Of a stretch of DNA of 64,000 nucleotides, positions 22,525-30,505 are shown piece by piece. The translations under genes were made by a program, and so were the position numbers. The notes under the pieces are model-generated. The model was not told the DNA's origin. It was given only the letters and a program-made list of their open reading frames with translations, and ran no database searches. Within the stretch, counting starts at the first letter, position 1; each line of letters begins with the position of its first letter. This DNA comes from Hyaloperonospora brassicae. Its lineage: Eukaryota; Oomycota; Peronosporomycetes; Peronosporales; Peronosporaceae. The stretch covers positions 54,362 to 118,361 of the forward strand of contig CANTFL010000372.1 in assembly GCA_947650285.1 (NCBI GenBank). The letters run 5' to 3'.

Positions 22525-22916
22525 TGTAACGGGGCAGCCCGTTACATGAAATTGTCACTTTAAGGAAAGTGACAATAAAGAATATAAAGATGGATATTCT
22601 TTAAACAATATCACCAAAGTGGTGATATTGAAGGGTCGACCAAAGGGTCTGTTCATTGGTTGATATCGTGATGATATCAACCCACCAATCGCCGCAAGAC
22701 GCGCGCAATGAGTGGTGACGAGACGTCACCATACATGCAGTTATATTAGTATAATTGAATTAAGTCAAACGAAGAGACAGTAGTTTAAAGACTTAATTTT
22801 ATTAATATAACAGTTCTACTTTTACCCTACCTACGCTTCCTCGCTTGCCACGTGTACGTCCGTCGGGGCACTCCAAATCCCTTGCGTTAAGTTACGCAAG
22901 GGTGTGCCCCGTTACA
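22525..22916 (+). repeat. 5' LTR of element 1
   Basis: The 392-bp LTR is nearly identical to 30115-30505. It consists largely of consecutive hairpins, for example 22551-22560 with 22567-22576. It should hold the promoter and polyadenylation signals, but I cannot place a TATA box with confidence. Confidence 0.92.
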
Positions 22917-22918
22917 CC

Positions 22919-22937
22919 TGGTAGCACTTTGTAGTCC
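22919..22937 (+). other. Primer binding site of element 1
   Basis: TGGTAGCACTTTGTAGTCC starts two bases after the LTR. TGGTAGC fits the GCTACCA 3' end common to initiator tRNA-Met. The same sequence follows the 5' LTRs of elements 2 and 4, so it is conserved in this lineage. Confidence 0.7.
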
Positions 22938-22960
22938 TTCCAAGAACCACATCATCCAAC

Positions 22961-24115
22961 ATGAACATGTTGGATGAAGAAGACACCTTTCACGCCACGC
23001 GTGAAGGGTTTACCCATTTGAGTGACATCGAATGGGGTGCGGTAGAACGAATGAGTTCTACCGTAGGCGAACTCGTCGTCAGCACCATGTTGGAGTCTCT
23101 AGACAGAGACCAACAACATGCCGCTATCGCCAAGCTCATTCAGAATGAACTTGCTCTCGAGAGGGAGAAAGTAGCCTTGCTTCACCAGCAAGGCTCTCAA
23201 CAGGCCGAGCAGTTGAGAGAACTCGGTGCTCAACAGACGGAGCTGTTGAGACAGCAGCAATTCCATGCTGCTGTGGGCGGGGCGGCGCATGCGCGTCGTC
23301 CCGAAGTCATGAAAGTTGACATCTCCAAGTACAGTGGAGTCCCGGAGGACTCCCTGTTACTATGGTTTGTCGAACTCGACAGAGCCCTAAGGGCTCGTCG
23401 CGTCGAAGATGAGCAAATGAAACTCACATTTGCTCAGACCCACTTGGCAGGGCGTGCCGAAACTTGGTCCCTGGGGCTAGAGAGTAGCGACCCAAATGTG
23501 TTTAGGTCGCTAGATGACTTCAAGTCCCGGCTCAGACAAACGTTTGAGCCGCCACGGGCTGAGTTCAGGGCTCGTTCAGAGCTCCTGAAACTCAAGCAGG
23601 GTAAGCGTGATGTGCACGCTTACGCACAACATATACGACTCCTTGCGAGTAGTATAACTGCTAACCCAGTACATGAACACACGTTGATTACGGTGTTCAT
23701 GCAAGGGCTCGCAGAAGGGCCCGTCAGGAGCCACCTGTTCCGCCTTGAGCTGAATACGCTTGAAGAAGCGATATCAGCCGCGGAACAGGAAGACTTTAGC
23801 ATGAGACAGGCTCATGCTAGCTCAAACTCTTACCGTCCACCGAGACGACAAGAGATCGGAGGTCCAGAACCAATGGACCTCTGCTATGTTGAGAGCGAGA
23901 GACCTCGCTATTCGAACAACAAGCGATTGCAGAAGTGCAATCGCTGTCAGAAGTTAGGGCACTACGCATACGAGTGTAGTGCTCCGCGCCCAGTACCAAA
24001 CAATACTGAGCGAAATGGACGACCATTCGCCAGAAAGGGCAATGGGCGTGGGTCCAGCGCTGTTGCGAAGCCGCAACAGCGAGACGGACCATCAAAAAAT
24101 GGTCGGGGTCAGTAG
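22961..24115 (+). CDS. gag: Gag of element 1
   Basis: The 384-residue protein starts at the first ATG after the primer site. Residues 60-105 are a Gln/Glu-rich, coiled-coil-like segment (LALEREKVALLHQQGSQQ). Residues 115-290 match the retrotransposon Gag capsid domain, with MKVDISKYSGVPEDSLLLWF, HLAGRAETWSLGL and RDVHAYAQHIRLLASSI. A CCHC zinc knuckle, CNRCQKLGHYAYEC, has its metal ligands at Cys326, Cys329, His334 and Cys339. A basic tail follows. Gag assembles the particle and binds RNA in the cytoplasm. The last codons contain a candidate -1 frameshift site leading into protease. The frame is intact. Confidence 0.9.
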   Translation: MNMLDEEDTFHATREGFTHLSDIEWGAVERMSSTVGELVVSTMLESLDRDQQHAAIAKLIQNELALEREKVALLHQQGSQQAEQLRELGAQQTELLRQQQFHAAVGGAAHARRPEVMKVDISKYSGVPEDSLLLWFVELDRALRARRVEDEQMKLTFAQTHLAGRAETWSLGLESSDPNVFRSLDDFKSRLRQTFEPPRAEFRARSELLKLKQGKRDVHAYAQHIRLLASSITANPVHEHTLITVFMQGLAEGPVRSHLFRLELNTLEEAISAAEQEDFSMRQAHASSNSYRPPRRQEIGGPEPMDLCYVESERPRYSNNKRLQKCNRCQKLGHYAYECSAPRPVPNNTERNGRPFARKGNGRGSSAVAKPQQRDGPSKNGRGQ

Positions 24116-28795: not shown

Positions 28796-29981
28796 TTGGT
28801 GGATGCTCACGGTGATCAACGCTTTCTAGTGGAGCGTATCTTGAATCACCGTGACGATTCAGGATCAAGGACGAGCTACCTCGTCCAGTGGCGGGGGTAT
28901 CCACCCTCTTGGAACAGCTGGGAGCCCCGCTCTCAGCTGTTGATGGATGTTGAAGGTCTCGTCCGCCAGTATGACGAGACCCATCCGATGAGTCCTGTGG
29001 CCCATCGGTAAACACGCGCCCTAGGCGCTTGTAGACGGATTGCAAGTTTGCAATCGCGTCACGCATCTCAGCCGAGATGTGTGCCCTTCCCCAGGGCGAA
29101 TTTAGGGAGTACACATCCCTATGTGCACGCTGCGAGTTGTCAACACAACTCGCACAAGGGTCTCCCCATGTGAGGCAAGGAATGCCTGCCTCACTCGATA
29201 AACAATTCAACCGGTACCTAGCACCGGTTGGCGTTCGCCGTTCGAACCTGAGGCGTGTCGCCTCAAGTTTCTTGAGCCACCCTTCTCGTCCAAAATTCTT
29301 TACGTTTTGGACGAACGCGTTCCACGCAGCCAAAAGCGATGTTTTGTCACGCTTTTGGTTGCTGTTGTACCATCGATGTCTAAGAAAGACATCGAGATAG
29401 AAATCTTCCTCAGCGCGAAAGTTCTTCGCGCTGGAACACAAGCCGTGAAGCTCGGTTGCATCGAATAAGGGTATTCGATGGTGTTGGCCTGTCTCGTGAG
29501 ACAGGCTATTGATGAGTTGTTCGGGCAAACGCCACGGCTTCAACTCATCACGCTTCACAGTGGTACCCTTGTTGGTACCACGGCTCCCAGATTGACGACG
29601 GCTCGCGCCATCGTCATCACGCTCGTGCGAAGACGCACGAGCCGGCGGTGGTGAAGAATAGAACTCACCACCCTGATCATCGTCATCACTGCCGAACAGA
29701 CTGTGATGCAAATCACGAGTCCGTTCGTTCGGCAGTGGTCTTGGCGAATACTGAGGCGTCGCCGGTGAGCGAGACGCCTCTGGAGCATTGCCCGAGTCAG
29801 ACACGTCTGACTCGCCAGAGTAGATGACCTCCACATCGGGGTCATCGTGCGCACGCGGCGTGATACCGCGTGCACCTGCAGCACCTGTTGCTGCAGGCGA
29901 AGAAAGGGGGCCGGACACCAAAACGCCTCCCCCAGAAACAGCACCAGGCTGTGTGGGTCTTGAGTCACCTCGCATAGACAT
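28381..29981 (-). CDS. Antisense accessory ORF of element 1
   Basis: The minus strand opens at ATG 29979-29981 and is uninterrupted for 429 codons to 28692. It shifts frame by one near 28730-28750 into a further frame to 28381 (MDRAIDELRDDLKHERD and on), so the intended product is probably about 530 residues. Order: a Ser/Pro/Gly/Asp-rich, probably disordered N-terminus (1-150); a folded-looking core (LKPWRLPEQLINSLSHETG, NFRAEEDFYLDVFLRHRWY); a Cys cluster (GIPCLTWGDPCASC); a disordered linker; a long coiled coil; and a basic end (RKKKARTDSTT). I recognise no family. A transcript could start in the 3' LTR. The core and Cys cluster have counterparts in element 2. The part at 28796-29011 lies opposite the chromodomain. 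Confidence 0.65.
28796..29011 (+). CDS. Chromodomain at the Pol C-terminus of element 1
   Basis: The frame encodes QRFLVERILNHRDDSGSRTS, YLVQWRGYPPSWNSWEPRSQ and a C-terminal helix, the canonical chromodomain pattern (Tyr/Val-Glu-Ile-Leu...Tyr-Leu-Val-Lys/Gln-Trp-x-Gly-Tyr...Trp-Glu-Pro). In chromoviruses this domain guides integration towards modified histones. It stops at 29011. The minus strand of the same DNA encodes part of the antisense ORF, so both strands read as protein. The frame differs from that of the preceding linker. Confidence 0.85.
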   Translation: MVDAHGDQRFLVERILNHRDDSGSRTSYLVQWRGYPPSWNSWEPRSQLLMDVEGLVRQYDETHPMSPVAHR

Positions 29982-30100
29982 GTTAACTATGCGAGGTCAA
30001 GCGAAAAGTGAATGGAACGGACCCAACAAGTGCTCCCTGTCCCAATGGTGGCCAACGGGTGGCCTCCATATTTTCGATAGTCACACGGTGACTATCAGTT
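29012..30100 (+). other. Sense-strand region between chromodomain and polypurine tract
   Basis: On the sense strand only short frames occur. All the coding signal is on the minus strand (antisense ORF). The DNA is still dense in inverted repeats, including a perfect pair flanking the antisense start codon (29968-29977 with 29987-29996). Confidence 0.6.
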
Positions 30101-30114
30101 AAGGGGGGGGGTGA
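30101..30114 (+). other. Polypurine tract of element 1
   Basis: AAGGGGGGGGGTGA lies directly before the 3' LTR (TGTAAC at 30115), the position for plus-strand priming. Confidence 0.75.
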
Positions 30115-30505
30115 TGTAACGGGGCAGCCCGTTACATGAAATTGTCACTTTAAGGAAAGTGACAATAAAGAATATAAAGATGGATATTCTTTAAACAATA
30201 TCACCAAAGTGGTGATATTGAAGGGTCGACCAAAGGGTCTGTTCATTGGTTGATATCGTGATGATATCAACCCACCAATCGCCGCAAGACGCGCGCAATG
30301 AGTGGTGACGAGACGTCACCATACATGCAGTTATATTAGTATAATTGAATTAAGTCAAACGAAGAGACAGTAGTTTAAAGACTTAATTTTATTAATATAA
30401 CAGTTCTACTTTTACCCTACCTACGCTTCCTCGCTTGCCACGTGTACGTCCGTCGGGGCACCCAAATCCCTTGCGTTAAGTTACGCAAGGGTGTGCCCCG
30501 TTACA
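30115..30505 (+). repeat. 3' LTR of element 1
   Basis: The 391-bp LTR is nearly identical to 22525-22916 and is followed by the target duplication CACAG. Confidence 0.92.

What the first reader, a model, noticed from the sequence alone, without database searches (positions are those of the whole stretch)
22525..30505. Element 1 is carpeted with short perfect inverted repeats from end to end
Reading the element base by base, almost every 30-50 bp contains a perfect inverted repeat with arms of 7-14 bp and a loop of 0-12 bp. Examples: 24247-24257/24261-24271, 24455-24464/24470-24479, 24517-24525/24535-24543, 24583-24596/24597-24610 (28-bp perfect palindrome), 24700-24710/24716-24726, 25086-25096/25105-25115, 25802-25813/25814-25825, 26844-26854/26857-26867, 27304-27313/27317-27326 and 28341-28350/28355-28364. 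They cover gag, protease, RT, integrase, the antisense region and the LTRs, so protein coding does not explain them. Elements 2 and 4 show decayed versions. Element 3 and the host-like gene at 20858-22041 do not show the pattern to my eye. The element's RNA would fold as a chain of hairpins, and the DNA could extrude cruciforms. Possible causes: selection for genome-wide RNA structure, as in some RNA viruses, or a mutational process such as template-switching reverse transcription.
Basis: seen in the sequence. Interest (0 to 1): 0.88.

Follow-up and report, generated by a model that had tools for sequence, protein, structure and literature searches.

The report
Retrotransposon built from small-RNA-sized palindromes
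A jumping gene in a downy-mildew-like genome carries over a hundred short mirror-image (hairpin) sequences, apparently kept by natural selection and cut off near 25 letters (21 in a sister family), lengths like those of the small RNAs that such organisms make, which hints that the element may be built to blunt silencing.

Summary
Element 1 (a numerous chromodomain Ty3/gypsy retrotransposon of an oomycete) holds 138 perfect inverted repeats (arm >=7, loop <=15) against 7.1 in dinucleotide shuffles; arm >=9: 74 against 0.37. Codon-preserving shuffles fall far short too. Element 3, the host exon and spacers sit near chance. (1) Pairing is Watson-Crick-strict and nearly strand-blind: G.U is no commoner than A.C, and sense and antisense fold alike (MFED 45.0/44.6%). 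Sense-RNA structure alone does not explain it. (2) There is a ruler: pairing collapses at a total span of 25.3 nt in family 1 and 21.1 nt in the related family 2; span predicts where stems end better than arm length. Hyaloperonospora arabidopsidis small RNAs peak at 21 and 25 nt. Between active lineages arms are conserved and pairs covary (LTR: 11 of 12 double changes Watson-Crick); in dead copies arms decay like other sites. I infer selection for self-complementarity inside small-RNA-sized windows, probably against silencing of an element with a conserved antisense gene. Template-switching palindromisation and a DNA-level function stay open. No small-RNA data were examined.

The parts
22520..22524 (.). 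target-site duplication CACAG (left)
   Evidence: identical CACAG at 30506-30510
22525..22916 (+). 5' LTR, TG...CA, with a hairpin starting at its first base (22525-22546) and six more, one of them with a 23-nt loop
   Evidence: the two LTRs are 99.7% identical
22961..24112 (+). gag (capsid + zinc knuckle); 18 inverted repeats arm>=7 vs 1.59 codon-shuffled
   Evidence: Pfam Retrotrans_gag 8e-16, Ty3_capsid 3.6e-9; zf-CCHC below cut-off
24010..25077 (+). protease ORF; 20 inverted repeats vs 1.71
   Evidence: Pfam RVP_2 7.5e-9
25016..27859 (+). RT-RNase H-integrase ORF; 47 inverted repeats vs 3.31
   Evidence: Pfam RVT_1, RT_RNaseH, Integrase_H2C2, rve
27786..28826 (+). integrase C-terminal ORF with Tf2-1-like SH3 domain
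   Evidence: Pfam SH3_Tf2-1 1.6e-13
28808..29008 (+). chromodomain
   Evidence: Pfam Chromo 6.7e-15
28363..29981 (-). conserved antisense gene (homologues 38-81% aa identity over their longer matches); helical core plus coiled coil; no Pfam family above its cut-off
30103..30111 (+). polypurine-tract-like G run next to the 3' LTR, lying between two hairpins
   Evidence: function inferred
30115..30505 (+). 3' LTR
24583..24610 (.). longest perfect inverted repeat: arm 14, loop 0
25802..25825 (.). inverted repeat, arm 12, loop 0, in RT
26844..26867 (.). inverted repeat, arm 11, loop 2
28340..28365 (.). inverted repeat, arm 12, loop 2
22879..22902 (.). LTR hairpin whose equivalent in the old subfamily carries a C-G to T-A compensatory change (read by eye)
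31353..32205 (+). element 4: decayed relative of element 1 (78% nt)
7187..17782 (-). element 2 (family 2): LTRs 7187-7505 and 17459-17782 (82% alike); its young relative L039 carries hairpins of median span 21 nt
36900..42500 (-). element 3: another gypsy clade, no excess of inverted repeats (negative control)

Best explanation
SHOWN: in one lineage of chromodomain Ty3/gypsy elements of an oomycete, natural selection (or a process that mimics it in replicating copies only) keeps Watson-Crick self-complementarity inside short windows across LTRs, gag, pol and the antisense gene. The two strands are treated alike or nearly so. Pairing is enforced only up to a total span, about 25 nt in family 1 and about 21 nt in family 2. 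INFERRED: the window is the length of the host's small RNAs (25 and 21 nt). A small RNA cut from such a stretch, from either strand, is its own reverse complement apart from the loop. It would fold on itself or pair with its twin, and so guide poorly. The element has a conserved gene on its antisense strand, so convergent transcription and double-stranded RNA are expected. Making small-RNA-sized stretches self-paired, with arms of at most 14 bp in element 1, would blunt silencing without building a long Dicer substrate.
For: Excess over dinucleotide and codon shuffles. Span ruler: after a 6-bp seed the next outward pair is Watson-Crick in about 0.75 of cases until the span nears 25 (el1 half-drop 25.3, 5-95% 24.7-26.3; sister L066 25.5, 23.5-26.5; eight of the 13 old loci pooled 25.9; family 2 21.1, 19.3-22.8) and then at chance. 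Span beats arm length by AIC: 639.3 vs 648.5, 306.4 vs 314.7, 166.1 vs 189.4. Arm and loop are anticorrelated, r -.22 to -.55. Strand symmetry. Arms are depleted of fixed differences between lineages (22/745 vs 152/1604 elsewhere) while private decay in dead copies is alike.081 arm.091 loop.082 outside. Young copies: shared variants 1.8% in arms vs 3.2% outside and 4.3% in loops, p=.002; singletons p=.13. Covariation: LTR e1 vs L066 11 of 12 double changes Watson-Crick (reverse 7 of 8); well-aligned columns elsewhere 6 of 7 and 8 of 11, slid partners at most 2. H. arabidopsidis small RNAs peak at 21 and 25 nt (PMC7297541, passages). In oomycetes most small RNAs on transposons are 25-26 nt, with Ph. 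cactorum an exception, and 25-26 nt peaks occur at antisense overlaps in Phytophthora and Lagenidium (PMC10080066, passages). The antisense gene is conserved.
Against: No small-RNA or transcript data could be examined; the match of 25 and 21 nt could be coincidence. The older family-2 copy (element 2, L037) gives 19.0 nt (16.3-20.8), a little under 21. In el1 the limit is soft and drifts upward for large loops. With a laxer hairpin definition the depletion of shared variants in young copies is only borderline (p=.052, singletons p=.078). Against the decayed LTR of L069, double changes are at chance (2 of 4 and 1 of 4). L066 folds somewhat better sense than antisense (MFED 41.6 vs 36.6%). siRNAs need not be in register with the hairpins, and only 39% of bases lie in them. 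Whether family 2 has an antisense gene is unknown. F1 and F2 sit in one genome, so why each follows one length is unexplained. No antisense transcript has been shown.
Confidence: 0.4

Rival explanations
1. Template-switching palindromisation: during reverse transcription the nascent strand snaps back and copies the nearby arm, making perfect inverted repeats with no function of their own; the span limit is the footprint of the reverse transcriptase.
For: Watson-Crick-only stems and no strand bias are what copying gives. The process acts only in replicating copies. Known as a hairpin source in DNA replication (PMC8794818, abstract and discussion read) and proposed for nematomorph mitochondrial palindromes (PMC6649704, abstract and discussion read).
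Against: Pure copying predicts arms diverging as fast as neighbours, only in step. At short LTR distance, e1 vs L053, arms of e1 differ at 4/116 and sites in no arm at 31/251; e1 vs old subfamily, mostly coding, arms .055 after correcting for ascertainment vs .095. Copying should make arm independent of loop; the data show a capped span. No spacer inversion was noticed in the handful of hairpins compared by eye.
Confidence: 0.25
2. Selection on DNA hairpins: cruciforms in chromatin or hairpins in single-stranded cDNA help integration, packing or protection from nucleases or mutators.
For: Strand symmetry and intolerance of G.T and A.C alike fit DNA duplex pairing; it covers LTR and coding alike.
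Against: No DNA function that I know of asks for a 21- or 25-nt span; arms of 7-10 bp with loops up to 12 nt are poor cruciforms (general knowledge, not tested).
Confidence: 0.15
3. Genome-scale ordered RNA structure of the sense transcript, as in many plus-strand RNA viruses.
For: Chain of stem-loops, MFED 45%; 884 of 906 testable repeat pairs (100 hairpins, arm >=8) sit in the local MFE fold; arms at most 14 bp, paired sites less variable, pairings partly replaced between subfamilies, features also reported for coronavirus structure (PMC7642675, passages). L066 folds somewhat better sense than antisense (41.6 vs 36.6%).
Against: G.U is not favoured: 28 vs 26 A.C in one-mismatch stems; one-sided changes in five comparisons sum to 18 G.U vs 32 A.C, and the comparisons left out of that sum show no G.U preference either (17 vs 20, 11 vs 17, 10 vs 11); element 1's antisense strand folds as well; no ruler is expected.
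Confidence: 0.12
4. Chance, base composition, or a by-product of codon usage or overlapping antisense coding.
For: Antisense coding overlaps part of the 3' end.
Against: About 20-fold (arm >=7) to 200-fold (arm >=9) excess over shuffles that keep dinucleotides and 9- to 14-fold over shuffles that keep protein and codon usage; the LTR, with no coding domain found, has it too.
Confidence: 0.01

Closest known systems
Genome-scale ordered RNA structure (GORS) of plus-strand RNA viruses
   Same: Hundreds of consecutive unbranched stem-loops through coding sequence; duplexes longer than 14 bp avoided; paired sites less diverse; positions and identities of pairs turn over (PMC7642675, passages).
   Different: Here the strands are equivalent or nearly so, G.U is not favoured, the span is capped near 25 or 21 nt, LTRs are included, MFED is 45% in element 1 against 15% in SARS-CoV-2 and 23.4% as the highest vertebrate RNA virus in that paper (shuffling and window rules differ; family 2 has only 14-16%), and the carrier is an LTR retrotransposon.
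Coding palindromes in mitochondrial genes of Nematomorpha
   Same: Perfect inverted repeats inside genes that still encode conserved protein, use of codon degeneracy, gains and losses between relatives (PMC6649704, abstract and discussion).
   Different: Those reach 284 bp; here the repeats are short with a capped span, imperfect stems also occur, the carrier is a retrotransposon in a large eukaryotic assembly, and non-coding LTRs have them too.
Template-switch mutations creating RNA hairpins
   Same: Can make and mend perfect stems and cause double changes without a G.U intermediate (PMC8794818, abstract and discussion).
   Different: No span limit is described in what I read; the conservation of arms here points to selection.
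Chromodomain Ty3/gypsy retrotransposons (chromoviruses) of oomycetes
   Same: Domain order, LTRs, chromodomain; pol relatives at 55-88% aa among the 120 listed, the named ones in Peronospora, Phytophthora and Globisporangium.
   Different: The palindromes and the conserved antisense gene; whether relatives in other species have the palindromes could not be read, as only their proteins were available here.

Membership tests
Ty3/gypsy chromovirus | gag, aspartic protease, RT-RNase H, integrase after RT, LTRs, target-site duplication | tested here: met
   Pfam hits, LTRs and CACAG duplication
Ty3/gypsy chromovirus | chromodomain at the integrase C terminus | tested here: met
   Chromo 6.7e-15 at 28808-29008
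GORS (sense RNA structure) | folding energy far below shuffled controls along the whole genome | tested here: met
   MFED 45.0% sense over 21 windows; mean z -5.71 over 47 windows
GORS (sense RNA structure) | selection sees the RNA, so G.U pairs are accepted on the sense strand | tested here: not met
   GU 28 vs AC 26 in 10-bp stems, 38 vs 27 in 9-bp stems; family 2 GU 5 vs AC 10 in 8-bp stems
GORS (sense RNA structure) | structure forms in the cell | not testable with these tools
   needs chemical probing
Template-switch palindromes | coupled changes in both arms | tested here: met
   LTR e1 vs L066 11 of 12 double changes Watson-Crick
Template-switch palindromes | arms otherwise evolve as fast as neighbours | tested here: inconclusive
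   slower at short distance (4/116 vs 31/251), near equal at long distance (30/114 vs 79/239)
Template-switch palindromes | spacer inversions | not tested
   only looked at by eye in a few hairpins; none noticed
Small-RNA-length self-complementarity (proposed here) | pairing stops at the length of the host's small RNAs | tested here: inconclusive
Small-RNA-length self-complementarity (proposed here) | hairpins lower small-RNA yield or loading | not testable with these tools
   no small-RNA reads held

The most novel reading that the evidence does not exclude
A mobile element has rewritten its sequence, coding and non-coding, into palindromes as long as the host's small RNAs, so that sense and antisense guides cut from them are the same self-folding molecule: a sequence-wide counter-measure to RNA silencing written largely in codon choice, with sister families tuned to the 25-nt and the 21-nt pathway respectively.
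Probability: 0.33. Interest if true: 0.96.

Novelty: categorically new. Interest (0 to 1): 0.9.

Why it matters
If right, this is a form of silencing evasion that works through sequence design and not through a suppressor protein, and it would show selection acting on the complementarity of sequence windows of small-RNA length. It also gives a ready natural experiment: two families in one genome with different spans, and dead copies as neutral controls. If the cause turns out to be reverse-transcriptase snap-back instead, it would be an extreme natural case of that mutation process. Nine full-text searches (listings only, open-licence papers only) showed no report of such an element among the listed titles and abstract openings.

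Tried and rejected
Sense-RNA selection: rejected as sole cause by the G.U/A.C test. Arms distorting the protein: not seen; el1 departs from conserved pol columns in 4 of 91 arm codons vs 17 of 303 outside (34 of the 120 listed homologues aligned). Mutation protection of paired bases: not favoured, singletons 5.2% in arms vs 6.3% outside and 7.1% in loops (p=.13; p=.078 with a laxer hairpin definition). A first count of compensatory changes found 0 of 373 pairs; it used a fixed-length alignment that hid at least one LTR case, and that comparison is mostly coding. In the 3' part of e1 vs L066 (28827-30113), unfiltered and poorly aligned in places, 20 of 45 double changes were Watson-Crick (reverse 21 of 37), not far from the one third expected by chance; the filtered figures drop the poorly aligned columns. 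Codon phases of repeats were 31/26/13, a mild bias. Viral-contig scan with pol: 7 pattern matches, none a relative. Fold search of the antisense protein in PDB: no match under E 0.001 (model mean pLDDT 56.6).

Controls that were not clean: 13 flanks of old copies had 26 repeats arm>=7 vs 11.4 expected and 8 of arm>=9 vs 0.2; 7 and 5 of these lie in L053's flank, which runs into an element-1-like LTR. Among five element-3-clade loci other than element 3 itself, L032 has 9 vs 3.4 and 3 of arm>=9 vs 0, though its MFED is -0.3%. The host control is one exon; copia and kinase loci could not be cut.
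Full report
WHAT IS THERE. Element 1 is a complete-looking LTR retrotransposon: CACAG target duplication, LTRs of about 391 bp, gag, protease, RT-RNase H, integrase, an SH3-like tail and a chromodomain. 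Its reading frame changes near a run of G at 27786; copies with long open frames exist elsewhere in the genome. The window lies in a 100.56-Mb, 898-contig assembly. Named pol relatives are in Peronospora, Globisporangium and Phytophthora and named relatives of the antisense protein in Hyaloperonospora and Peronospora, so the host is an oomycete of the downy mildew kind (inference). The family is very numerous: 2198 first-look candidates, of which only 40 were scored, all at 98-100% identity.

IS IT MORE THAN CHANCE. Yes. 138 inverted repeats (arm >=7, loop <=15) against 7.07, 74 against 0.37 for arm >=9. Shuffles that keep the protein and codon usage fall far short (pol 47 vs 3.31), and the pol ORF folds 22 standard deviations better than 40 codon shuffles. 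Element 3, the host exon and three spacers are near chance; of the five other element-3-clade loci four have 2-7 repeats vs 1.2-3.2 and L032 has 9 vs 3.4. Mean folding z is -5.71 sense and -5.69 antisense, with fractions .98 and 1.00 of 47 windows below -2.

IT IS A LINEAGE TRAIT. Family 2 (young copies L039-L048, relatives of element 2, which shows 38-57% aa identity to element 1 in pol segments) has 36-39 repeats vs 3-6 expected in 4.4 kb. The sister subfamily L066 (83% nt to element 1 over 2.56 kb) has 63 vs 5.0. The older copies L050-L062 (81-90% to element 1 in their main matches) have 20-44 vs 2.4-5.2.

STRANDS ARE ALIKE. In 10-bp stems with one mismatch, G.U occurs 28 times and A.C 26 times (shuffles 0.4 and 0.7); at 9 bp 38 vs 27. 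Family 2 has 5 vs 10 at 8 bp. One-sided changes: young shared variants 4 G.U vs 6 A.C (my tally's list), fixed differences 4 vs 5, e1 vs L066 coding 6 vs 8 and 2 vs 6, element 2 repeats in young family 2 2 vs 7: 18 vs 32. Left out of the sum, as decay or poor alignment enters: 17 vs 20, 11 vs 17 and 10 vs 11. Selection on sense RNA would favour G.U. MFED is 45.0/44.6% sense/antisense in element 1, 14.4/15.6% in family 2, 41.6/36.6% in L066, 0.9% in element 3; the L066 gap is the one sign of a sense preference. Either DNA or both RNA strands look like the object.

SELECTION IN ACTIVE LINEAGES. Against 13 dead copies of a sister subfamily, differences shared by at least 60% of them fall in arms at 22/745, loops 24/254, elsewhere 128/1350, while private decay is .081.091.082. 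Because hairpins were defined in element 1, I repeated it with hairpins defined in at least three old copies.0257; the sum .055 is still under .095. In 30 young copies (hairpins present in at least 10) shared variants are rarer in arms (25/1412 vs 95/2788, p=.002) and singletons are not clearly so (74/1412 vs 179/2788, p=.13); with hairpins present in at least two copies the figures are p=.052 and p=.078. Hairpins also turn over: 33 of 43 element-1 hairpins in that stretch are found in at least three old copies, and nine centres in old copies are absent from element 1, one of them the displaced LTR-end hairpin.

COVARIATION. Element 1 vs L066, LTR (non-coding): of 58 element-1 pairs 40 same, 11 both changed and still Watson-Crick, 1 both changed and broken, 4 one-sided, 2 gapped; in the reverse direction 7 of 8 double changes are Watson-Crick. 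L053 vs L066 gives 10 of 11 and 7 of 9; e1 vs L053 only one double change, Watson-Crick; e1 vs the decayed L069 2 of 4 and 1 of 4. Well-aligned columns of the rest of e1 vs L066: 6 of 7 (p=.007 against one third) and 8 of 11 reverse (p=.009); slid partners gave 0-2. In the unfiltered 3' part the share is near chance (20 of 45, reverse 21 of 37). Four of the eleven LTR double changes are of transversion type and cannot pass through G.U.

THE RULER. Spans (two arms plus loop) cluster: with arm >=8, median 24 in element 1 (n=99), 24.5 in L066 (n=48), 21 in family 2 (n=27); span varies less than if loops are permuted among hairpins (p<.001 in all three; with arm >=7 p=.0066.0006.0002). Starting from 6 perfect pairs, the next outward pairs stay Watson-Crick in about three quarters of cases until the total span nears a limit, then fall to about one quarter, in each loop class, with some upward drift for large loops in element 1. 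The half-drop is 25.3 nt in element 1 (5-95% 24.7-26.3), 25.6 in its gag-pol part, 24.8 in LTR plus 3' part (22.3-25.8), 25.5 in L066, 25.9 in eight of 13 old loci pooled, 21.1 in family 2 (19.3-22.8), 19.0 in element 2 (16.3-20.8). Span predicts termination better than arm length in all three sequences tested; in element 1 arm length adds a little (AIC 636.6 with both). Arms reach 14 bp in element 1 and 15 in one old LTR. A demand for stability alone should give longer arms with larger loops, the opposite of what is seen (inference).

MEANING. Hyaloperonospora arabidopsidis small RNAs have two peaks, 21 and 25 nt (PMC7297541, passages read). In other oomycetes 25-26 nt RNAs map mostly to transposons (Ph. 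cactorum: main peak 31 nt) and are frequent at antisense overlaps in Phytophthora and Lagenidium, 21 nt RNAs more to inverted repeats and genes (PMC10080066, passages read). Element 1 carries a gene on its antisense strand whose protein is conserved in 21 listed relatives, down to 38% identity over long matches, so double-stranded RNA is to be expected. I therefore propose that selection favours self-complementarity inside small-RNA-sized windows. The chain from ruler to silencing is inference; the ruler, the strand symmetry, the conservation and the covariation are results.

WHAT SPEAKS AGAINST. Copying by template switching explains Watson-Crick strictness and double changes; it does not explain the slow arms at short distance or the capped span, but at long LTR distance arms and neighbours differ about equally (30/114 vs 79/239). 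The small-RNA link rests on a match of two numbers and on another species' data.

Noticed in passing
28363-29981 (-): Antisense gene with low-confidence N terminus, helical core and long coiled coil (model mean pLDDT 56.6); relatives carry source-given names such as 'Core-binding (CB) domain-containing' and 'RxLR effector candidate'; Pfam scans of four relatives and of the window ORF gave no family above its cut-off.
   Followed up: partly
27786-27794 and 30103-30111: Two G runs of nine with the same upstream TAA; the inner one looks like a central polypurine tract and the reading frame of element 1 changes near there.
   Followed up: no
48250-64000: 131-bp satellite array, about 15.7 kb, also rich in inverted repeats because one unit recurs (217 arm>=7 vs 33).
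   Followed up: partly
L039 (family 2): Family-2 hairpins (arm >=8) mostly start with G (18 of 27, 7 with C), and so with G on both strands; Hyaloperonospora arabidopsidis small RNAs favour 5' U.
   Followed up: no
22525-30113: The 5' arms of element-1 hairpins are slightly purine-rich (G .293, A .250, C .245, T .212).
   Followed up: no
7891-8911 (+): Open frames antisense to element 2 in the place where element 1 has its antisense gene; no similarity to that gene found by tblastn; the database query could not be made.
   Followed up: partly
L068: Two element-1-like 3' ends facing each other with different divergence (95-97% and 81%), suggesting nested insertion or subfamily mixing.
   Followed up: no
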